60,859 nucleotides of DNA from a virus. Both the position numbers and the translations under genes were made by a program. The notes below the pieces were generated by a model. That model made no database searches and was not told where the DNA came from. It worked only from the letters and a program-made list of their open reading frames with translations. The stretch spans positions 1-60,859 of the IMG/VR virus record IMGVR_UViG_3300027896_000043; one strand, 5' to 3'. Shown here one piece after another: positions 5,591-55,041 of the stretch (positions within the stretch are counted from its first letter, which is position 1; every line of letters starts with the position of its first letter).

Positions 5591-5944
5591 ATGAAGACAT
5601 CAAAAAAAAATAATTTATCACCGACAATGATAAATCTTCCATCTAATAATGTTGATATGGAAAAATTTATAATCGACAACCGGGATTATTTGTACCAGAA
5701 TATTATTGATAATATTGAATATGCTCTCAATTCTAAACAAGTAATGGCAAAAATATTTGAATTTGAAAATTCTCCCTTTGTAATTTTTATCGAACATAAA
5801 AATTTCCGTGAAAATTTAGAACATATATTCGACGAAAGTTTAAAATTTGAAAAATATGAATTATGTGCAAAAATAAAAAATTTGTTAGTAAGATTAGATA
5901 AACCACACTACATTAAGAGTTATAAAAAAATCAATATATTATAA
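5591..5944 (+). CDS. Hypothetical protein, 117 aa
   Basis: A 117-residue protein with very AT-rich codons (Lys, Asn, Ile). It begins MKTSKKNNLSPTMINLPSN and continues with helices DYLYQNIIDNIEYAL and NFRENLEHIFDESLKFEKYE. The C-terminal segment ELCAKIKNLLVRLDK resembles the helical UVR-type motif, but the match is too short to assign. It lies 1 nt before phoH and is probably co-transcribed with it. Confidence 0.65.
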   Translation: MKTSKKNNLSPTMINLPSNNVDMEKFIIDNRDYLYQNIIDNIEYALNSKQVMAKIFEFENSPFVIFIEHKNFRENLEHIFDESLKFEKYELCAKIKNLLVRLDKPHYIKSYKKINIL

Positions 5945-44796: not shown

Positions 44797-45420
44797 ATGA
44801 AACATTGTAACGGACAATCTAATCTTTCGATAGTAAAATCGTATTTAGCAGGAGAACGACCACTAACGGTTGTTGGTTATACAGCTCCAATCGAAGAAAA
44901 GCACGAAATCGGAGATAAGTGGACCGATTCATCTGGAAAACATTGGGAGCAAACCGCTGGAGGTCCATCTCGACAAACTCCCGTTATGGATATTATCCGA
45001 GCAGAACTAAACGATATTTGCTCATGTTGTGGAGCTGAAATTCGCTGGGGCGATAGATATGATCGTAAGTTCTATCACAAAACCGGTAAGTGTTTTAATT
45101 GTCTAATTCAAGAAGAAACCCAACTCCGAATCAAGGGAAAATATAAGTTATATGAACAAAAGAAAGTATTTCAAAATCAACGTTCATATCTTCTAGATAT
45201 TCGTAAGAAACTACGTGAGGCATTCGATTATACAAAGGAACATACGGAGATTACATTCGTCAATTCTAACGGATTCGTTGAGTCGTGGGAAAATAACGCA
45301 CGAGACGACTTATTGTCAGGTCTAAAGAAAGATTTCGTTAAATGCTTAAAAACAATTAAAGAAGTTGAATCTGCTATTGTAGATATCGATAAACAAATTA
45401 ATTCCACGATAAATGGCTGA
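44797..45420 (+). CDS. Zinc-finger protein directly upstream of terminase
   Basis: A 207-residue protein whose stop overlaps the terminase start by 8 nt. It has four cysteines in CSCCGAEIRW and CFNCLIQEE (about 75-110), a zinc-finger pair. A helical C-terminal half follows (RSYLLDIRKKLREAFDYTKE, FVKCLKTIKEVESAIVDIDK) with coiled-coil character. Position just before gp17 is where T4 gene 16 (small terminase) lies. The helical oligomerisation part fits that role, but the zinc finger is not a gp16 hallmark. I regard small terminase as a positional guess. Confidence 0.75.
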   Translation: MKHCNGQSNLSIVKSYLAGERPLTVVGYTAPIEEKHEIGDKWTDSSGKHWEQTAGGPSRQTPVMDIIRAELNDICSCCGAEIRWGDRYDRKFYHKTGKCFNCLIQEETQLRIKGKYKLYEQKKVFQNQRSYLLDIRKKLREAFDYTKEHTEITFVNSNGFVESWENNARDDLLSGLKKDFVKCLKTIKEVESAIVDIDKQINSTING

Positions 45421-45997
45421 AACACAAGATTTACGGGCACTACTTAAACTAGAATATGCGAGATGTGCAAAAGATCCAGTATATTTTATGCGCAAATATG
45501 TTAAGATTCAGCATCCAGTGCGTGGTACCATTCCGTTTTTAACTTATAAATTCCAAGACGAAGCCGTTGCGGATTTTGGGAAGCATAGAAAAAATATAGT
45601 TCTAAAATCTAGACAGATGGGCATTACAACCCTCGTTGCAGCATATTCACTGTGGTTGATGGTTTTTCACGAAGACAAGGAAATCTTATGCATTTCTATC
45701 ACACAAGAAACCGCAAAAACTATTGTAACCAAAGTTAGATTTGCCAACGACAATCTTCCGTCGTGGTTAAAGGTGAAAGAAGTTACGGACAATCAATTGT
45801 CACTACGATTGGAAAATGGTTCACAAATTAAAGCGGCAAGTTCGGCTGGGTCTTCTAGCCGTGGATCGGCCCTATCACTTTTGATTATTGACGAATGCTT
45901 GGATTTTCACACCAAAATTACTCTACGAAATAAAAAAACCGGACAAGAAAAAATTGTACCAATCGGAGAAGTCTATGAGCAAGAAAATTACAGTTAG
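45413..45997 (+). CDS. 17: Large terminase, N-terminal ATPase part fused to split-intein N-half
   Basis: A 194-residue gene product. Residues 1-161 are the start of gp17: FLTYKFQDEAVADF, then a P-loop-like KSRQMGITTLVA (about 61-72; the canonical GK is replaced by GI, as in some terminases), and Walker B LLIIDE at 156-161. The protein stops being terminase exactly after Walker B and continues as 33 intein residues (CLDFHTKITLRNKKTGQEKI...) ending at TAG 45995. The rest of the terminase is encoded by the next gene after a 225-nt gap. Translational overlap of 8 nt with the upstream gene. Confidence 0.92.
   Translation: MAETQDLRALLKLEYARCAKDPVYFMRKYVKIQHPVRGTIPFLTYKFQDEAVADFGKHRKNIVLKSRQMGITTLVAAYSLWLMVFHEDKEILCISITQETAKTIVTKVRFANDNLPSWLKVKEVTDNQLSLRLENGSQIKAASSAGSSSRGSALSLLIIDECLDFHTKITLRNKKTGQEKIVPIGEVYEQENYS
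45896..45994 (+). other. N-terminal half of atypically split terminase intein (33 aa)
   Basis: Begins with the nucleophile Cys1 right after Walker B Asp-Glu. The block-A motif CLDFHTKITLRNKKTG and a second strand IVPIGEVYEQ are present. It ends at an in-frame stop before blocks B, F and G, which lie in the following gene. Total for both halves is 147 aa, mini-intein size. The split after about 30 residues, rather than near 100, is the AceL-TerL type. Confidence 0.88.
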
Positions 45998-46222
45998 TAA
46001 AACATAGAAAATGTTACTTTTTCTAGATTTGAACCTAAAAAATCCCGGATTTTTTACATCCGTTAGCAAAACCCTATAACTGTGATTTATCAAAACGACG
46101 AAAGAATACCCCTTGGTCTTTAGCCAAGGGGTAGTTCACAAAAGCAAAAACCAAAGCCGCAATTACATATTCCAAAAAATGGGATATCTATCATACAAAA
46201 TTTTATTTGAAACAAAATCCAT
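45998..46222 (+). other. 225-bp non-coding spacer between split-intein genes
   Basis: Contains no ORF of note. It holds an A/T palindrome AAAAAATCC-C-GGATTTTTT near 46032, the hairpin described at 46107-46139, and a second hairpin ATATTCCA/TGGGATAT at 46167-46187. The downstream gene has an in-frame TGA 12 nt before its ATG, so readthrough of the first stop cannot join the halves. Confidence 0.8.
46107..46139 (+). ncRNA. IS200/IS605 right-end or omega-RNA-like hairpin
   Basis: A perfect 10-bp stem TACCCCTTGG/CCAAGGGGTA with loop TCTTTAG is followed by GTTCAC. A C-rich hairpin with a TTTAG-type loop, then G(T)AGTTCAC, is the arrangement I know from right ends of IS200/IS605-type elements, where the TnpB guide RNA (omega-RNA) scaffold ends and the guide begins. 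Here the guide would start at 46140. No TnpB or TnpA gene is in the window. A simple structural or processing hairpin remains possible; there is no U-run for a terminator. Confidence 0.4.
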
Positions 46223-46564
46223 ATGAGCCTAGACTACAAAGACGTCAGTGAATGGGAAGTAATGACTCCAACCGGTTGGCAATCATTTTCCGGAATAAAG
46301 AAAACTACCAAGAAAAAATACATATTGTTGGAATTTGCCTCCGGGAAAACATTAAAATGCTCCACCGGGCATAAATTGAAGCGGTGGGATGGAGTTTTTG
46401 TTGATACTACCAGAATTCGGGAAGGAACCAAAATTATCGACGTTGGAGGAGAACTTGACACCGTAATCAACAAGAAACCAATTCTGGACCCAATTGACGT
46501 ATATGATTTAGTTGAAGTAGAAAATGGCCATGAATATTTGACAAATGGGCTCGTTTCGTCTAAT
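46223..46564 (+). other. C-terminal half of atypically split terminase intein (114 aa)
   Basis: Carries block B (KTLKCSTGHKLKRW), block F (DVYDLVEVENGHEYLTNG) and block G LVSSN, followed by +1 Cys. The penultimate residue is Ser instead of the usual His. The start MSLDYKDVSEWEVMTPTGWQ corresponds to the MFRTNTNNIKILSPNG-type start I recall for the AceL-TerL C-intein. No endonuclease domain. Confidence 0.88.
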
Positions 46565-49500
46565 TGTGCATTCGTTCCGGGAGTCGAGGATATATGGTTG
46601 TCCGCTCAAAATACACTCAGCACCGGAGGAAAAGCAATTGTATTGTCATGTGTAACGGCCGATACTTACATATTTGATAAACAACTTGGATTAACCCAAA
46701 TTAGTAACTACGTAGACAGTTCCAAGATCGGACCATACGAAATTTCAAAATACAACATATTGGGAAAAGATACTTTCCGTGGAGGAATTCTATTTCACAA
46801 CAATGGATTGGTAGATACCAGAAAAATTTCAACTAAATTTTCCGATATAGAATGTAGTTTAAATCATAAATTGTGGGCATATAGATCGACAACAAAAACG
46901 TTTGGATGGACAAAATCCGAAGAATTAGAAGTGGGTGATTTTTTATCAATCCAACATGGTTCACAACATTTCGTTGCAAACGACGATGTATCGTCATTCT
47001 TTCCAACTATATCCAACAAAATTAAGTCTCCGTTTGTACCAACCATTCTAACTCCCGATATTTGTTATTTATTGGGATTATACATATCGGAAGGAAGCAC
47101 ATACGAAGTTAAAAACCCAGATGGAAAGCTTGTAGGTGGAATGTTGACTATTTCGTGTGGAGATAACATTTCTTCGGTGTTTGATCGACTCGGGTTAAAA
47201 TATTATACAAATGACAATTTACATTATTGTATATCCAACAAAAACGTAATTGAATTTTTGGAATATATTGGATTTGATTTATCATACGTTGCACACGAAA
47301 AAATTATTCCACAACGATTGATGTCTATTAGTCGTAACAACATGATTCAATTGTTACGGGGAATATTTGACGGTGATGGGGGCGGCGAGGCAGGTAATCG
47401 TGTTGGGTTGGCGTCTACGTCCGAGACTCTAATAGACCAAGTTAGAATGCTCTTACTAAATTTTGGAATATTATCCTCCAAATTCCGCCAAACCAAAGAG
47501 AAAATGAATAGTTATGGTGGGAAAATAAAACACAACCACGATATACATTCACTGGAAATATATGGACAACACGCGCTAAAATATTTTACTAGGATAGGGT
47601 TTAACGTAAAACGTAAACAAAGTGGACATGATAAGTTAATAACGTCAAATCTATCCAGAAGCTGTACACGCGACGTAATACCGAATACATTGGATCTTAT
47701 CAATTCATTATATAAAGTGTCCGGGGAAACATCCAAAACCGTCAGTCAAAAACTTGGAATTCAATTAAACGGATACGTAAATAAAAAGACAAAATATAAG
47801 ACGTCGAATATTTCAGCAACAAATGTTAAATTGTTATATTCAACATATAAACATCTATTATCGGAAGCCGACATTAAATATTGGGACATGGTGATAGATG
47901 ATGATCTCACGTGGGTAGAAATTAAAAAAATAACGGAAAGTAAAAATTACACATATGATTTTTCACTTCCGGACGATCCTTCCGACAATTGGTGCCATTC
48001 CGTGTTATACAATGGACTTCTCGGGCATCAAACACCAAACGGTGTGGGAAATCTGTTCCATAAATTGTGGTCCGAAGCTACTGATGGGTTAAATGATTTC
48101 AACATGCTGAATCTTCCGTGGCAGTTGCACCCGGAAAGAGAACAAAAATGGAGAGATGAACAAACCAAATTATTGGGACCAAAGGGCGCAGCACAGGAAT
48201 GTTTTGAGGCTGATACCAGAATTTATACAGATAGTGGGTTCAAGCGCATTGCTGATATTAAAATCGGAGACCAAGTTCTTACGCACGCCGGCAGATATCG
48301 TCCAGTATTGCACGTTATTAATAACGGAGTAAAAGATGTAATAGAAATCCGGAGTAGTTTAAATAGAACAAACAGAAAAGTTACGGCAAATCACCCATTT
48401 TACACCAACGATAAAAAATGGGTTGAATTAGACAAAATAAATTCTCCGATCATATCGTATCCGGCCGAAGCGGATATCCCAAGCAAATACACAGAGAACA
48501 AAACCATAGATTTGTTGGAGCACATTAAACCGACATTTTTCAAATTAAAATTGTGCAATGATGATACATCCGTGTACATCAATGACAGAAAGCATAAAAC
48601 AATACACAATAGAATTGTTACATTGAATTATGATATTGGATTTTTAGTTGGATTATATCTGGCGGAAGGCTGGGCTGAAGACGATAGAGTATATTTCTGC
48701 TTTAACTGGAAAACTGAAAAAAATGATTGTCCGATTAAAGTTTTATCCATAATCCACAAAAATATAAGTTCAAATATTAATTCGTCATTTAGAAAGACGG
48801 GAGACACCGATTCCGGACAATTGATGGTTAATAGTCAAATACTGTCCAAACTACTCCATGCATTGACGTGTGGGTCGGATTGTTACGATAAATGTTTATC
48901 CGCTAAATCGTATGAGTTAGGGTCTATTGATTATTTTAAAGGAATATTAGATGGTTTATTTATCGGAGATGGTATGGTATTGGACAAATATGGAAAAAAA
49001 TATTGCTCCGCGTCCGAAAATATTAGATATGATGTCAAATATTTAATGCGTATAGTTGGTTTTGGTCTCATGTCTATGTACGGTAGAGAGCTACATTTAC
49101 TGGGAAGTATTCGGAAACATTGTGATGATAGATTATTGTCTTCGATATTGGACAGCGAATATATCCACCCACATGCAGCAAATTTTGGACACCTCGATGA
49201 TGGAAGTGAATATTCAAAAATTATCAGAAATGATTATGTTGGATATTCCATGGTTTATAATTTAGAAGTAGCTGATGACCATTCTTACGTAACTGAGCAC
49301 GCGGTTGTTCATAATTGTGATTGTGTCTTTGAAACTTCCGGCAACACAGTAATAGACCTCAAATTATTAGAGTGGTATGAAAAAGAAAGCAAATCTATAA
49401 TAGAGCCAAAAGAAAAGCGTGGACATGATCGTGGATATTGGATATGGGAATATCCAAAATCTGGACGATCTTATATGGTTACTGCTGACGTTGCGAGAGG

Positions 49501-50209
49501 TGATGCGGCAGATTTTTCTGCGTGTCAAGTTATTGACGTAGAGACACTCGAACAGGTTGCTGAATATAAAGGACAAATTCCAACCAAAGAATATGCTAGA
49601 ATTATTGCGGCTATAGCAACTGAATATAATCTGGCGTTGTTAGTGGTTGAGAATGCAAATATTGGATGGGCAGTAATACAAGAATTGGTGGATATGGATT
49701 ATAAAAATCTATTTTACAGTTCGTCCGATTTGCTGTATGTAGACGTTGATGTACAATCCTCGAATAAAATTAATGCACAAGACAAAAAATTAGTTCCCGG
49801 ATTTACGACATCATCAAAATCTAGACCATTATTGATCTCCAAATTAGAGAGCTATATTCGTGAAAAGTCACTAATAATCCACTCCAGACGATTGATCGAG
49901 GAATTAAAAGTATTCGTGTGGAAAAGCACTGGTACGACAATTAAAGCTGAAGCAATGTCTGGATACAACGATGATTTGGTTATGTCAATTGGTATAGCAG
50001 CGTGGATTCGAGATACGGCATTACGTCTACAGTCTCAAAATAATGATTTAACCCGTACTTTGTTAACCAGAATGGGAAGTACAATAAAACCGATTGAAAA
50101 TAAAATACATTCCACCGCTCAAGGAAATCCGTACGGAATAAATACCGATCCGTGGAAAATGAGAATCAATGACTCGGTCACGGAAGACTTGACTTGGTTG
50201 ATCGGATGA
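46223..50209 (+). CDS. 17: Large terminase, remainder, with split-intein C-half and two further inteins
   Basis: A 1328-residue precursor. Order: intein C-half (1-114), extein CAFVPGVEDIWLSAQNTLST... (115-142), intein 2 (143-603), extein TPNGVGNLFHKLW... (604-659), intein 3 (660-1031), extein to the end. The last extein has the nuclease acids ADVARGDAADFS, VENANIG and NDDLVMSIG. Joined exteins of both genes give 542 residues, near the size of gp17 homologues (T4 610). Start ATG 46223 has no Shine-Dalgarno sequence. The enzyme packages DNA into proheads; three splicing events, one in trans, are needed to make it. Confidence 0.92.
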   Translation: MSLDYKDVSEWEVMTPTGWQSFSGIKKTTKKKYILLEFASGKTLKCSTGHKLKRWDGVFVDTTRIREGTKIIDVGGELDTVINKKPILDPIDVYDLVEVENGHEYLTNGLVSSNCAFVPGVEDIWLSAQNTLSTGGKAIVLSCVTADTYIFDKQLGLTQISNYVDSSKIGPYEISKYNILGKDTFRGGILFHNNGLVDTRKISTKFSDIECSLNHKLWAYRSTTKTFGWTKSEELEVGDFLSIQHGSQHFVANDDVSSFFPTISNKIKSPFVPTILTPDICYLLGLYISEGSTYEVKNPDGKLVGGMLTISCGDNISSVFDRLGLKYYTNDNLHYCISNKNVIEFLEYIGFDLSYVAHEKIIPQRLMSISRNNMIQLLRGIFDGDGGGEAGNRVGLASTSETLIDQVRMLLLNFGILSSKFRQTKEKMNSYGGKIKHNHDIHSLEIYGQHALKYFTRIGFNVKRKQSGHDKLITSNLSRSCTRDVIPNTLDLINSLYKVSGETSKTVSQKLGIQLNGYVNKKTKYKTSNISATNVKLLYSTYKHLLSEADIKYWDMVIDDDLTWVEIKKITESKNYTYDFSLPDDPSDNWCHSVLYNGLLGHQTPNGVGNLFHKLWSEATDGLNDFNMLNLPWQLHPEREQKWRDEQTKLLGPKGAAQECFEADTRIYTDSGFKRIADIKIGDQVLTHAGRYRPVLHVINNGVKDVIEIRSSLNRTNRKVTANHPFYTNDKKWVELDKINSPIISYPAEADIPSKYTENKTIDLLEHIKPTFFKLKLCNDDTSVYINDRKHKTIHNRIVTLNYDIGFLVGLYLAEGWAEDDRVYFCFNWKTEKNDCPIKVLSIIHKNISSNINSSFRKTGDTDSGQLMVNSQILSKLLHALTCGSDCYDKCLSAKSYELGSIDYFKGILDGLFIGDGMVLDKYGKKYCSASENIRYDVKYLMRIVGFGLMSMYGRELHLLGSIRKHCDDRLLSSILDSEYIHPHAANFGHLDDGSEYSKIIRNDYVGYSMVYNLEVADDHSYVTEHAVVHNCDCVFETSGNTVIDLKLLEWYEKESKSIIEPKEKRGHDRGYWIWEYPKSGRSYMVTADVARGDAADFSACQVIDVETLEQVAEYKGQIPTKEYARIIAAIATEYNLALLVVENANIGWAVIQELVDMDYKNLFYSSSDLLYVDVDVQSSNKINAQDKKLVPGFTTSSKSRPLLISKLESYIREKSLIIHSRRLIEELKVFVWKSTGTTIKAEAMSGYNDDLVMSIGIAAWIRDTALRLQSQNNDLTRTLLTRMGSTIKPIENKIHSTAQGNPYGINTDPWKMRINDSVTEDLTWLIG
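46649..48031 (+). other. Terminase intein 2 with LAGLIDADG endonuclease, terminal Gln
   Basis: 461 residues. Starts CVTADTYIFDKQLG. Block B is ECSLNHKLWAY. LAGLIDADG motifs are LLGLYISEGST and LLRGIFDGDGGGE. It ends NGLLGHQ before +1 Thr of TPNGVG. The last residue is Gln rather than Asn, a rare but known variant. The insertion splits the terminase S/T-PNG motif (coupling motif), one of the most conserved points of the ATPase. Confidence 0.85.
48200..49315 (+). other. Terminase intein 3 with LAGLIDADG endonuclease
   Basis: 372 residues. Block A is CFEADTRIYTDSGFKRIADI, block B is KVTANHPFYT. Endonuclease motifs are LVGLYLAEGWA and ILDGLFIGDGMV. The canonical end AVVHN is followed by +1 Cys. 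It is inserted between GAAQE and CDCVFETSGNTVI of the terminase. Confidence 0.9.
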
Positions 50210-50234
50210 ACTATCATTTGATTATTGAGAATAA

Positions 50235-50258
50235 AAATAGTAATACTTACTATTTATA
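50235..50258 (+). promoter_or_regulatory. Hairpin overlapping a CTATTTATA late-motif variant
   Basis: A perfect 9-bp stem AAATAGTAA/TTACTATTT with a TAC loop (50235-50255) overlaps a CTATTTATA motif (50250-50258). The portal ATG is 25 nt downstream. It could combine end-of-terminase processing with the start of the portal transcript. Confidence 0.4.
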
Positions 50259-50283
50259 ACCACCCATATCCATATATACCATT

Positions 50284-53200
50284 ATGGCAGATAAAACCGA
50301 AGCGGAAAACAAAAACGATACACTATTCAATAAACTCAAGAAGTTATTTTCTTCTGGTGTAATAGTGCGGAATGTTGGTGGCAAATCATTAAAGATATCC
50401 GATACGGATAATATTCAATATGCTACCGACAGAAACAGCCTACGTGATCGATATAATAGATTACGAAGTTCAACGTACAATTTACACAACCGGGATATGT
50501 CATTGGCATATCAAGCGGCGAGATTGGAACTATTTCGTGATTACGATTGTATCGGAGAAGATACTATAATTCCTCTCCCAGATGGATCCAAACCAACGAT
50601 TAAAGAATTGACCGAAAAATATAAAGATTCACCGAAAGAAAAATTTTATGTTTTTTCGTACGATCATGATAGTAAATCAATACATCTCGGAAACGCATAT
50701 CATCCCAGAAAAAAGGGAATTCGAAAAGCGTGGAAAGTTACATTCGACGATGGAAAATATATAATTGGTAGCGCGGGGCATCCGTTCTTAATGAGAAACG
50801 GCGAATATAAAAAGTTAGAAAATGTTACGGTCGGCGAATCTGTTATGCCGTTTTATCAAAAGGATTTTTATCATAGTGGTTATCGTAGCATTTATAATTT
50901 TAGTAAAGGTTGGCAGTCTGAACATGTTATCGTGGCGGAACAATTTAATCACAAGTTGTTAGAAAATGAAGTTGTTCACCATAAAGATTTTAATAAAACC
51001 AACAATCTACCGACAAATTTGGTAATAATGAATGATGCCGATCATCGGGCATATCACTGTAAAATAAATAATGAGAAAATTTGGTCAAAAGAAAATAGAG
51101 AAAAACAAATTTTATCAATTCGCAATTCCGTTCAATTTAGAAAAGTTCATTCTTGGAACGGAAAAAGAAGTGGAAAAAATAATCCATTTTTTGGAAAAAC
51201 TCATACCATTGAATCGAATAATAAACGATCATCGTCATTAAAATCTGCATATTCAAAAATAGATACCACCGGAGATAAAAATTCTAATTACAGAGACGAT
51301 TTAACATTTGACAATTTAAAAATAAAAGCAATTGAATATTACAAATCAAACGGAAAATTACTCATTGATGAATTTTCTAAGTGGGTCGGATGTGGACAAT
51401 CCAGTATACGCGTCAGATTAAAATCGAACAATACTGTATGGAAATCGTTTAAATCCGAGATAGAATCCACACTTAATCACAAAATTACGTCAATTGAATA
51501 TATCGGCGAAAAAGATGTATACGATGTTACGGTTGATAAATATCAAAATTTTGCCACCGATAGTTGTTTCGTACATAATACGATGGATTCTGATGCAATT
51601 TTGGCATCCGCACTCGACGTTTACGCGGATGAGTGCTTAGTGCCATCAGAATTTGGAAATGTGTTGACGATTACTTCCGAAAATGAACAAGTAAAGAAAA
51701 TTCTCGAAAATTTGTTTAATGACATATTAAATATCGAATTTAATTTGTGGTCATGGACTAGAAATTTGGCAAAATACGGAGACTTCTTTTTGCGTATGGA
51801 AATTTCTCCGGAATATGGTGTATATTTAGTTAAACCACTGTCCGCGTACGAAATAACGCGAGTGGAAGGATCGGATCCACAAAATATAAATTATGTAAAA
51901 TTTCAACATGACGGACTCGGCGGTGGACAGGAATATGAAAATTTTGAGATGGCACATTTTAGATTATTGAGCGATAGCAATTTTCTTCCATATGGAAAAT
52001 GTTTAAAAGGAGATACATATGTTGATACCGAATTTGGAACGACGCAAATAAAAGATATTAAAGTTGGTGATGTAGTTTGGACATTCAATTCTACTACCAA
52101 TAAAATGGAACTGAGTACTGTTCTAAATCAAGTATCCTCCGGAATTAAGGAGATCATTCGAGTTCGAACACAACATAATTTTGTCGATTGTAGCCGAGAG
52201 CACCCAATACTCACGTACAATAAATTGACAGAAAAGATGGAATATAAAGTCACAGATGAAATTAAAATCGGAGATTTATTGATTATTTCTTCCAATAACA
52301 ATAAACAAAGTCGTGGACATAAGATAGATAAAACCGTCAGTGAGGATTTGACATGTAAATCATTTTCTCCAACAATCGACGAAATTCCAGACTATGTTGA
52401 CGAAGAATTTGCAGACTTTTTTGGATTTATGTTGGGAGATGGTTGGATTAAAAAATATTCCAATGGTGCCAGAGTTTGTTTTTCACTTGGAACGGATGAA
52501 ATTCAAAATACAAAATATATTGCGGCATTAGAAAAATATTCAGGAAAACCGGTACGGGTAACTAAAGTTGGAAGTATGGATGGAAAATCCCGATCTGCCA
52601 CCGTTTATACAAAGCGTTTATATGAAATATTGAGAAATATGGGATTTGGTGAAAATGCAAAAACAAAACGAATTCCCACTTGGGTATTTGAAGCACCGGA
52701 ATCAATTCGTTTAGCACTTCTGGATGGATTTTACAACGCAGACGGTTGGGAATTTACTGATACATGGGCTAAACATTGTGCAATAGAACTGTGCAATAAA
52801 GATTTAGTTTTTGATATAAAGAGATTGGTGCAATTAAGTAATATAAAATCGTCGATTCCGTCTTCTCGCATTTACAATGATACGGTTGAAATCTGCGGGG
52901 TTTCGTGTAATAGATCGGAAAATCATTCTATATACTATTACCCGGAAGGCCAGATTAAGCAAAAGATGGAAAAATATGATTTTATAGATTCGGATAATAT
53001 TTTCATCGAACCCGTCAGAAAAATTGAATATCAACCAGAAGCAGAAACCTTCGATATTCAAGTAGAATCAAACAATTCTAATTTTATAGCAAACGGAATT
53101 ATTGTTCACAATTCCATGTTAGAACCCGCTCGCCGTATTTGGAAGCAATTATCGTTAATGGAGGACGCAATGTTAATTCATCGTATTGTCCGCGCTCCAG

Positions 53201-55041
53201 AAAAACGTATCTTTAAGGTTGATGTTGGTAATATTCCACCCGCGGAAGTGGATATGTACATGGAAAAGTTAATGAATAAGGCAAAGAAAGTTCCATATAT
53301 TGACGAACGAACCGGAGACTATAATCTCCGATACAACTTAAACAATATGTTGGAAGACTTTTGGCTCCCGGTTCGTGGTGGAGACAGTGGAACATCGATT
53401 GATACACTATCCGGAATGGAATTTACGGGAATCGAAGACATTGAATATTTACGAAACAAGATGATGGCAGCGCTTAAAATTCCGAAAGCATTTTTGGGAT
53501 ATGACGAAACTCTATCTGGTAAATGTGTCCGTGGAAATACCAGAATTAAATTATTGGACGGTAGAGTTATGGAAATTAAAGACATTGCCGAATCATATCA
53601 GAATGGAAATGATCCTAAACTTGAAACATATTCATATGATACATCGACTAATTCAATTATTCCCGGAAAAATCGTTGAATGCAAAAAAACAAGATTAAAT
53701 GCTGAATTGGTTCGAATCCATTTGGATAATGGTACACACGTAGATACCACTCCGGATCATGGATTCGTTTTACTGGGAGGTAATCGAATTGACGCGAAAG
53801 ATTTGTCTCCGGGAAATAGTTTACAAGCAGTATATATTAGAACGAAAAAATTAGCACTTAATGCTAATGAATATGAGCAACTATATCAACCAAATACTCA
53901 ATCATGGGTTTGGACACATGAAATGGTAGATGAATATTATTCCGGGAAAATTATTAATAATGGATATACTCCGGGAAGAGTAAAAACACTAAAAAATAAA
54001 AATAAAATTTTCAACCATAAAGTTGTCAGCGTAGAATTTATCACTGACCGCGAAGATACATATAATATGGAAGTGTGGGACAAGAATGAGAATCACAATT
54101 ATCTCATAGATAATGGAATCATTATAAAAAATTCAACACTTGCAGCAGAAGATGTAAGATTCTCACGTACAATAGGTAGAATGCAAAGAATTATCGTTTC
54201 TGAACTATCAAAAATTGCAGTTGTTCATTTATTTGTTCAGGGATATAAAGATGCTTCACTTGTAGATTTTGAATTGAAATTGTCCAATCCTTCTACAGTA
54301 TTTGAACAAGAGAAGATTGCAATTTGGCAAGATAAAGTTAACTTGGCTAAAGACATGATGGAATCCAATAGTTTTAGCCGTAAATGGTTATATACAAAAT
54401 TGTGGGGATTGACCGAAGAGGAAGCTGAGCAAATACATACTGACGTTATTTCCGATAAAAAGGAAGAATGGAGATTGGAGCAGATAACAACTGAAGGTAA
54501 CGATCCAATGATGAGTAAGCAAAAAGTTGGGTCCGATGGAGAGTTGTCCGATGTTGGTGAATCCGGCGGAGACGAATCTTCTGAAGGATTACCCGATTTA
54601 TCTAGTTCCGGAAATGAAGCTGAAGCTCTTCCCGATTTATCTAGTTCCGGAAATGAAGCTGAAGCTCTTCCCGAGTTGACCGAATCAGATAAACCAAAAA
54701 AAGAAGAGGAGCCGCCTTCCCGACAAGAGAAGGATGAGCGAAATAGAAATAGAGACCAAACCGGAGAAAAAGATTCCACTGATTATCCTTTCGGTGAAGA
54801 TCCTCTTGGCACACAAGAAACTTTCCGTGAAAAATCACACAGAAAACCGAATAGAACAACGAATCCTAGACCGTTACGAGTAACTGAACGCTCACAGGGA
54901 ATTTCAATGGCATCTATGGCAGAAGAGCTTAAATCAATTAAACAAACATTGAGTCAAAGAAATCTCGTCAAAAATAAAAAATTGATAATTTCGGAAACAA
55001 CTTCGATGTTGGATGAATCGAATTTACTTGCCGATGAATAA
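50284..55041 (+). CDS. 20: Portal protein precursor with three inteins
   Basis: A 1585-residue precursor. Joined exteins (88 + 140 + 137 + 302 residues) give a 667-residue gp20-type portal (T4: 524). Characteristic extein parts are YDTMDSDAILASALDVYADE, WTRNLAKYGDFFLRMEI, PYGKSMLEPARRIWKQL, RAPEKRIFKVDVGNIP, and MAALKIPKAFLGYDE. The longer C-terminus is acidic and charged, with a perfect 13-residue repeat. The portal nucleates head assembly and is the DNA channel where the terminase docks. The precursor must lose three inteins; a failed splice would block head assembly. Confidence 0.94.
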   Translation: MADKTEAENKNDTLFNKLKKLFSSGVIVRNVGGKSLKISDTDNIQYATDRNSLRDRYNRLRSSTYNLHNRDMSLAYQAARLELFRDYDCIGEDTIIPLPDGSKPTIKELTEKYKDSPKEKFYVFSYDHDSKSIHLGNAYHPRKKGIRKAWKVTFDDGKYIIGSAGHPFLMRNGEYKKLENVTVGESVMPFYQKDFYHSGYRSIYNFSKGWQSEHVIVAEQFNHKLLENEVVHHKDFNKTNNLPTNLVIMNDADHRAYHCKINNEKIWSKENREKQILSIRNSVQFRKVHSWNGKRSGKNNPFFGKTHTIESNNKRSSSLKSAYSKIDTTGDKNSNYRDDLTFDNLKIKAIEYYKSNGKLLIDEFSKWVGCGQSSIRVRLKSNNTVWKSFKSEIESTLNHKITSIEYIGEKDVYDVTVDKYQNFATDSCFVHNTMDSDAILASALDVYADECLVPSEFGNVLTITSENEQVKKILENLFNDILNIEFNLWSWTRNLAKYGDFFLRMEISPEYGVYLVKPLSAYEITRVEGSDPQNINYVKFQHDGLGGGQEYENFEMAHFRLLSDSNFLPYGKCLKGDTYVDTEFGTTQIKDIKVGDVVWTFNSTTNKMELSTVLNQVSSGIKEIIRVRTQHNFVDCSREHPILTYNKLTEKMEYKVTDEIKIGDLLIISSNNNKQSRGHKIDKTVSEDLTCKSFSPTIDEIPDYVDEEFADFFGFMLGDGWIKKYSNGARVCFSLGTDEIQNTKYIAALEKYSGKPVRVTKVGSMDGKSRSATVYTKRLYEILRNMGFGENAKTKRIPTWVFEAPESIRLALLDGFYNADGWEFTDTWAKHCAIELCNKDLVFDIKRLVQLSNIKSSIPSSRIYNDTVEICGVSCNRSENHSIYYYPEGQIKQKMEKYDFIDSDNIFIEPVRKIEYQPEAETFDIQVESNNSNFIANGIIVHNSMLEPARRIWKQLSLMEDAMLIHRIVRAPEKRIFKVDVGNIPPAEVDMYMEKLMNKAKKVPYIDERTGDYNLRYNLNNMLEDFWLPVRGGDSGTSIDTLSGMEFTGIEDIEYLRNKMMAALKIPKAFLGYDETLSGKCVRGNTRIKLLDGRVMEIKDIAESYQNGNDPKLETYSYDTSTNSIIPGKIVECKKTRLNAELVRIHLDNGTHVDTTPDHGFVLLGGNRIDAKDLSPGNSLQAVYIRTKKLALNANEYEQLYQPNTQSWVWTHEMVDEYYSGKIINNGYTPGRVKTLKNKNKIFNHKVVSVEFITDREDTYNMEVWDKNENHNYLIDNGIIIKNSTLAAEDVRFSRTIGRMQRIIVSELSKIAVVHLFVQGYKDASLVDFELKLSNPSTVFEQEKIAIWQDKVNLAKDMMESNSFSRKWLYTKLWGLTEEEAEQIHTDVISDKKEEWRLEQITTEGNDPMMSKQKVGSDGELSDVGESGGDESSEGLPDLSSSGNEAEALPDLSSSGNEAEALPELTESDKPKKEEEPPSRQEKDERNRNRDQTGEKDSTDYPFGEDPLGTQETFREKSHRKPNRTTNPRPLRVTERSQGISMASMAEELKSIKQTLSQRNLVKNKKLIISETTSMLDESNLLADE
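50548..51579 (+). other. Portal intein 1 with HNH/NUMOD3-type endonuclease
   Basis: 344 residues. Starts CIGEDTIIPLPDG; block B is IIGSAGHPFLM. The centre is an HNH nuclease (EHVIVAEQ, VVHHKDFNKTNNLPTNL, ADHRAYH) followed by a NUMOD3-like GKNNPFFGKTHT. It ends SCFVHN with +1 Thr. An HNH endonuclease in an intein is much rarer than LAGLIDADG. Confidence 0.85.
52000..53112 (+). other. Portal intein 2 with LAGLIDADG endonuclease
   Basis: 371 residues. Starts CLKGDTYVDTEFGTTQIKDI; block B is FVDCSREHPILT. Endonuclease motifs are FFGFMLGDGWI and LLDGFYNADGWE. It ends ANGIIVHN with +1 Ser. Inserted in PYGK|SMLEPARR. Confidence 0.9.
53524..54132 (+). other. Portal intein 3, mini-intein or degenerate endonuclease
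   Basis: 203 residues. Starts CVRGNTRIKLLDGRVMEIKD; block B is HVDTTPDHGFVLL. It ends DNGIIIKN with +1 Ser; the penultimate residue is Lys. About 65 residues between the B and F blocks are too few for a full endonuclease and show no LAGLIDADG or HNH motif. Confidence 0.85.
54592..54669 (+). repeat. Perfect 39-bp direct repeat in the portal gene
   Basis: Two identical adjacent 39-bp copies (54592-54630 and 54631-54669) encode PDLSSSGNEAEAL twice in the acidic C-terminal tail. Complete identity suggests a recent duplication. Confidence 0.95.

What the first reader, a model, noticed from the sequence alone, without database searches (positions are those of the whole stretch)
46107..46139. IS605/TnpB-like right-end hairpin inside the split-intein spacer
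The spacer between the intein halves contains a perfect hairpin with a TCTTTAG loop followed directly by GTTCAC. This layout resembles the 3' end of TnpB omega-RNAs and the right end of IS200/IS605 elements. Fractured phage genes usually have a homing endonuclease ORF at this place. Here there is only a possible guide-RNA end. One idea is that an RNA-guided nuclease element split the intein and then lost its protein, or that a guide RNA works with a TnpB encoded elsewhere. The guide would begin AAAAGCAAAAACCAAAGC at 46140.
Basis: inference. Interest (0 to 1): 0.75.

Follow-up and report, generated by a model that had tools for sequence, protein, structure and literature searches.

The report
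Broken transposon end in nuclease scar
Between the two halves of a phage's split DNA-packaging gene lies the leftover right end of a TnpB-type jumping element, sitting exactly against the broken tail of the homing-endonuclease gene that relatives carry there, so it is mainly a fossil of one selfish element invading another, with no sign of a working guide RNA.

Summary
The hairpin is real and is the right end (RE) of an IS200/IS605 TnpB-type element. It has GAAT before the stem, a 10-bp stem, a TCTTTAG loop and GTTCAC, and GAA can pair with TTC. A pattern made from it finds TnpB genes directly upstream in viral, bacterial and archaeal sequence. A covariance model built without the window finds it at E=2e-7. 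It did not split the intein. Relatives with the same terminase (TerL) split mostly carry a free-standing homing endonuclease (HEN) between the halves. The "guide" AAAAGCAAAAACC... is the 3' coding end of such a HEN: KAKTKAAITYSKK/GYLSYKILFETK (one frameshift) aligns with the tail of the HEN in relative L024 (score 87; best of 200 shuffles 39). The homology starts 2 nt after the predicted RE end. Best reading: an IS605/TnpB element entered the HEN, and most of both was lost. No left end, tnpB, tnpA or recognisable omega-RNA body remains in the 60.9-kb contig. One of the closest relatives with this split, a 369-kb virus, carries 15 TnpB genes, one with the same RE type. A trans-acting guide RNA is not excluded but unlikely.

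The parts
45413..45997 (+). TerL N-half: ATPase N-extein followed by a 33-aa N-intein (45896-45994) and stop
   Evidence: Pfam Terminase_6N; N-intein and extein align with L024
45976..46063 (+). Probable 5' remnant of the homing endonuclease gene (ATG overlapping the N-half end, then frameshift and stops)
   Evidence: Start ATG overlaps the N-half as in L024, L114, L124; residue similarity (NIENVTF ~ NIYNITF in L114) only marginal, 25/300 shuffles as good
46104..46139 (+). IS200/IS605 TnpB-type right end: GAAT, 10-bp stem with TCTTTAG loop (46107-46133), GTTCAC (46134-46139)
46140..46226 (+). 3' remnant of the homing endonuclease gene (one frameshift near 46180; TGA 46224-46226 overlaps the C-half ATG); this is the sequence proposed as a guide
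   Evidence: score 87 against a shuffle maximum of 39
46223..50209 (+). TerL C-half: C-intein 46223-46564, then extein with two further cis inteins

Best explanation
The spacer is the scar of a lost free-standing homing endonuclease (HEN) gene. Ancestors of this T4-related phage had the known 'fractured gene' layout: TerL N-half with a short N-intein, then a DUF7487/TnsA-like HEN ORF overlapping both halves, then the C-half starting with the C-intein. An IS200/IS605-type element with a TnpB-class right end inserted into the 3' part of the HEN gene, about 86 bp before its end. Later the element's left part and most of the HEN were deleted, and a frameshift hit the remaining tail. What is left is about 40 nt of right end plus the HEN tail. 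The split intein presumably still joins the two TerL halves by protein trans-splicing, so the scar is tolerated. The sequence that looks like a TnpB guide is simply the HEN tail next to the element's end, as expected for any insertion. Shown: hairpin class, HEN-tail homology, junction position, HENs in relatives, TnpB richness of a close relative. Inferred: order of events, the deletion, present lack of function, continued splicing.
For: RE anatomy and its association with tnpB: of 17 contexts found with the RE pattern or by plasmid search, tnpB sequence lies within 170 nt upstream in 9, none has iscB. Covariance model without the window: 43.1 bits, E=2.4e-7. IS608 has GAAT and TCAA at the same places (PMC5934647). 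HEN tail: score 87 against shuffle maximum 39, second HEN 59 against 41. Homology begins at 46141, 2 nt after the RE end; the ATGA stop/start overlap is identical in L024. Most relatives with this split carry a HEN in the gap. The 369-kb relative virus has 15 TnpB genes, one with RE GAAGCCCCTGCCTTTAGGCAGGGGAGTGTTCAC.
Against: No left end and no tnpB/tnpA relic identified, so the element's original size is unknown. The stretch 46064-46103 is unassigned. The HEN 5' remnant is only suggestive. No uninterrupted close relative was found to show the empty site.
Confidence: 0.82

Rival explanations
1. The right end is part of a still working guide RNA (solo omega-RNA) that uses a TnpB encoded elsewhere in the phage or the host. 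Transcribed with the TerL mRNA, its guide (HEN tail) would aim TnpB at intact HEN alleles of competing phages.
For: Perfect hairpin and GTTCAC are preserved. A close relative virus has many TnpBs, and the window is only a 60.9-kb linear contig. Solo ends are common.
Against: No scaffold similarity upstream of the hairpin (74% of shuffles as good). No TnpB in the contig. No GTDB species genome searched carries the exact stem with GTTCAC. At the matching HEN site of L024 a 20-nt guide has 4 mismatches and the preceding bases are GAAAT, unlike the element's TTCAC (read).
Confidence: 0.05
2. A TnpB element replaced the homing endonuclease as the mobile nuclease of the fractured gene (RNA-guided homing at the split), and then lost tnpB.
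For: HEN classes are swapped freely at this split (DUF7487, 343-aa TnsA-like, HNH, GIY-YIG), and TnpBs abound in a close relative.
Against: No tnpB was recognised among the gap ORFs of the roughly 80 split-TerL loci listed (read by eye, part of the output cut). The end lies within HEN coding sequence, so a plain insertion explains everything seen.
Confidence: 0.08
3. The end belongs to an IscB (HEARO) element read on the minus strand rather than to a TnpB element.
For: The exact stem-loop core occurs at the 5' end of HEARO RNAs next to iscB in L002 and L004.
Against: Those ends read TTGAC with TCAA/ACAA before the stem, not TTCAC with GAA. HEARO gives no match in the window or spacer. Ends with GTTCAC go with tnpB, never iscB, in this sample.
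Confidence: 0.04

Closest known systems
IS200/IS605 family right ends (IS608, ISDra2 and TnpB-only elements)
   Same: Subterminal palindrome, short guide bases before the stem pairing with the terminal cleavage site (IS608: GAAT and TCAA; here GAAT and TCAC; PMC5934647), CTTTAG loop and GTTCAC shared with TnpB-linked ends
   Different: Only about 40 nt are recognisable; no left end, tnpA or tnpB; lies inside a HEN scar
Ends-only / PATE-like decayed IS605 copies (Halanaerobium, PMC7290912)
   Same: Element reduced to its ends in various stages of decay
   Different: Here only the right end is found, in a phage gene
Fractured phage genes with split inteins and free-standing HENs (Dassa et al. 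2009, cited in PMC13014065; paper itself not held)
   Same: TerL split by intein halves with an intervening HEN in relatives
   Different: In this phage the HEN is destroyed and a transposon end sits in its remains
Atypically split TerL inteins (AceL TerL, GOS TerL)
   Same: Short N-intein (33 aa, within the 15-37 aa range given in PMC13014065), in TerL
   Different: Splicing not tested; C-intein ends SSN|C, with Ser where relatives often have His

Membership tests
IS200/IS605 (TnpB-type) right end | Subterminal palindrome with guide bases 5' of the stem complementary to the 3' cleavage site | tested here: met
   GAAT + 10-bp stem + TTCAC; the DNA fold pairs GAA with TTC
IS200/IS605 (TnpB-type) right end | Same end sequence found at the 3' side of tnpB genes elsewhere | tested here: met
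   9 of 17 contexts, none with iscB; covariance model E=2.4e-7
IS200/IS605 complete element | Left end hairpin, and tnpA and/or tnpB | tested here: not met
   No second CTTTAG palindrome, no PF07282, PF01385 or PF01797 match in the contig
TnpB omega-RNA / reRNA | About 100-150 nt scaffold upstream of the right end, overlapping the tnpB 3' end | tested here: not met
   45998-46103 no more similar to 29 reference regions than shuffles. Scaffolds are divergent, so sensitivity is limited
TnpB omega-RNA / reRNA | Transcribed, processed and bound by TnpB | not testable with these tools
   Needs RNA sequencing or pull-down
HEARO (IscB omega-RNA) | Match to RF02033 | tested here: not met
   No match in window or spacer; controls L002 and L004 match at 109 and 108 bits
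Fractured gene with free-standing HEN | Intein halves at the ends of two ORFs, HEN ORF between | tested here: inconclusive
   Intein halves present; HEN present only as frameshifted remnants
Atypically split TerL intein | N-intein of 15-37 aa, remainder in the C-half | tested here: met
   33-aa N-intein and 114-aa C-intein (range from PMC13014065)
Atypically split TerL intein | Protein trans-splicing activity | not testable with these tools
   Needs expression of both halves

The most novel reading that the evidence does not exclude
The preserved right end still yields a guide RNA, loaded by a TnpB encoded elsewhere in the phage (a close relative has 15) or its host. Its HEN-tail guide would cut intact homing-endonuclease alleles of co-infecting phages and so protect the HEN-free terminase allele: an RNA-guided element working against a protein-guided one.
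Probability: 0.05. Interest if true: 0.85.

Novelty: new member of a known kind. Interest (0 to 1): 0.36.

Why it matters
It shows an IS200/IS605 TnpB-type element landing inside the homing endonuclease of a phage fractured gene, in a lineage where TnpB genes can be abundant. It warns that the flank of such an end looks like a guide but is simply the interrupted gene. It also places two kinds of DNA-cutting selfish elements, protein-guided and RNA-guided, at one split-gene site, which makes competition between them testable.

Tried and rejected
Rfam for an omega-RNA: no hit, but TnpB right ends used as controls also give none, so this is not a test. The weak Rfam matches trpB, ncr952 and Six3os1 are chance matches below their gathering scores. 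blastn of the spacer against phages gave only chance matches, and against plasmids essentially only the hairpin of methanogen TnpB-type ends. Looked for a left end (only one CTTTAG palindrome in the window), a tnpB C-terminal relic (none) and omega-RNA similarity upstream (none beyond chance). HEN 5' remnant: marginal, reported as suggestive only. Searches of viral contigs for further intact HENs of the L024/L124 class gave only the known ones (plus L109, a partial match). Intrinsic terminator: the hairpin lacks a T-run on the + strand; a weak terminator-like match exists on the - strand only, where no gene is known to end. Dassa et al. 2009 (PMC2677866) is not held in the library.

Full report
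WHAT IS THERE. The spacer 45998-46222 lies between the TerL N-half (45413-45997, ending in a 33-aa N-intein) and the C-half (46223-50209, starting with the C-intein). At 46107-46133 there is a perfect 10-bp hairpin with loop TCTTTAG, followed by GTTCAC; GAAT precedes it. Its DNA fold is far better than shuffles (z -5.6) and pairs GAA with the terminal TTC.

IS THE TnpB/IS605 READING RIGHT? Yes for the end itself. A pattern from the 3' arm (CTTTAGNCNNGGGGTAGTTCAC) gave 7 viral and 9 GTDB loci. Among the contexts read, with two plasmid loci added and the window's own virus left out (17 in all), tnpB sequence lies within 170 nt upstream on the same strand in 9 (L014 only a C-terminal piece; L007 and L008 are the same element), 7 are solo ends, L010 has tnpB 1.3 kb away, and none has iscB. 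Two methanogen plasmids have near-identical hairpins; in Methanomethylovorans it lies just behind an annotated tnpB, while the Methanohalobium copy is a solo end with another TnpB gene about 1 kb away. IS608 has GAAT before its right palindrome and TCAA after it (PMC5934647); here it is GAAT and TCAC. A covariance model made from 10 such ends, without the window, finds 46018-46139 with 43.1 bits, E=2.4e-7 in 200 kb, although the score comes mainly from the hairpin.

TnpB OR IscB? The exact stem-loop core also occurs at the 5' end of HEARO RNAs next to iscB in L002 and L004, but those end in TTGAC with TCAA or ACAA before the stem, and HEARO gives no match in the window. TnpB type is therefore favoured. 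Rfam is silent on true TnpB right ends too, so its silence here means nothing.

WHAT FLANKS IT. Two contigs of one close split-TerL relative (L024/L028; TerL N-half 60% identical) have a 478-aa ORF between the halves, DUF7487 with a TnsA-like nuclease end, overlapping both halves. Its last residues IKAKTKCAIKFSKENGYLPYKIIFENKI* reappear in the window directly after GTTCAC as KAKTKAAITYSKK, one frameshift, GYLSYKILFETKSI*, and the TGA overlaps the C-half ATG identically. A frameshift-aware alignment scores 87, against a maximum of 39 in 200 dinucleotide shuffles; a second HEN (L124) scores 59 against 41. So the proposed guide is HEN coding sequence, and the junction lies at the predicted element end (46139; homology from 46141). 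On the left, an ATG at 45976 overlaps the N-half as the HEN start does in relatives, but the rest of the HEN 5' similarity is marginal.

RELATIVES. A profile search returned 80 TerL loci with this intein family. Among those read, most have gaps of roughly 0.4-2.7 kb with free-standing HENs of several classes; some are contiguous inteins; a few have short gaps, including L114, an independent internal HEN deletion that leaves 35 codons (part of the output was cut). Only the window and one near-identical contig have the hairpin in what was read. The split therefore does not depend on the IS element.

TnpB IN THE LINEAGE. The window has no TnpB or Y1 transposase. But the 369-kb virus carrying L028 has 15 TnpB genes and its 97-kb relative has 5; one ends in GAAGCCCCTGCCTTTAGGCAGGGGAGTGTTCAC, the same end class. 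An IS605/TnpB donor in this lineage is thus realistic.

MECHANISM. Best reading: insertion of an IS200/IS605 TnpB-type element into the HEN of a fractured TerL gene, followed by loss of most of element and HEN; the split intein keeps the gene working (trans-splicing inferred from family knowledge, not tested). A functional guide RNA would need a scaffold upstream of the hairpin; none resembles 29 reference right-end regions. In L024 the corresponding HEN site has 4 mismatches to a 20-nt guide and is preceded by GAAAT, unlike the element's TTCAC (read). The trans-acting guide reading stays possible but unlikely.

VERDICT. Observation confirmed; TnpB-type right end confirmed; 'the element split the intein' and 'a guide instead of a HEN' not supported. 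A known kind (decayed IS605 end, compare PMC7290912) in an unusual place.

Noticed in passing
IMGVR_UViG_3300025162_000016 (L028, L199-L213): This 368,758-base virus record carries 15 TnpB genes (its 97-kb relative, L024, has 5), with several right-end types (GTTCAC, TTCAC, TTGAC). Whether all of the record is phage was not checked.
   Followed up: partly
window 45413-55041: Two adjacent packaging genes (TerL, portal) appear to hold six inteins: one split and two cis in TerL, three in the portal; Pfam finds LAGLIDADG in one TerL intein and HNH in one portal intein.
   Followed up: partly
L011 5331-5889: A solo right end of the same class (a second CTTTAG hairpin about 60 nt upstream may be its left end) stops exactly at the 5' end of a tmRNA gene: end at 5740, tmRNA 5739-5331 minus.
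   Followed up: no
L114 3895-3999: Independent loss of the same HEN: only a 35-codon N-terminal remnant lies between the TerL halves.
   Followed up: partly
L119-L121, L126 gap between TerL halves: Other short gaps: L126 holds a 125-aa ORF, and L119 a shorter open stretch ending in the same residues (KQFFNIEHN), which looks like a series of HEN truncations.
   Followed up: no
L002 10204-10232, L004 4604-4632: The identical stem-loop core starts HEARO RNAs of iscB elements but with TTGAC instead of TTCAC; the bases before the stem change with the end (TCAA/ACAA against GAA), consistent with guide/cleavage-site pairing.
   Followed up: partly
window 46556-46567; L024 C-intein end: The C-intein ends SSN|C in the window and L024 instead of SHN|C, i.e. 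Ser in place of the penultimate His.
   Followed up: no
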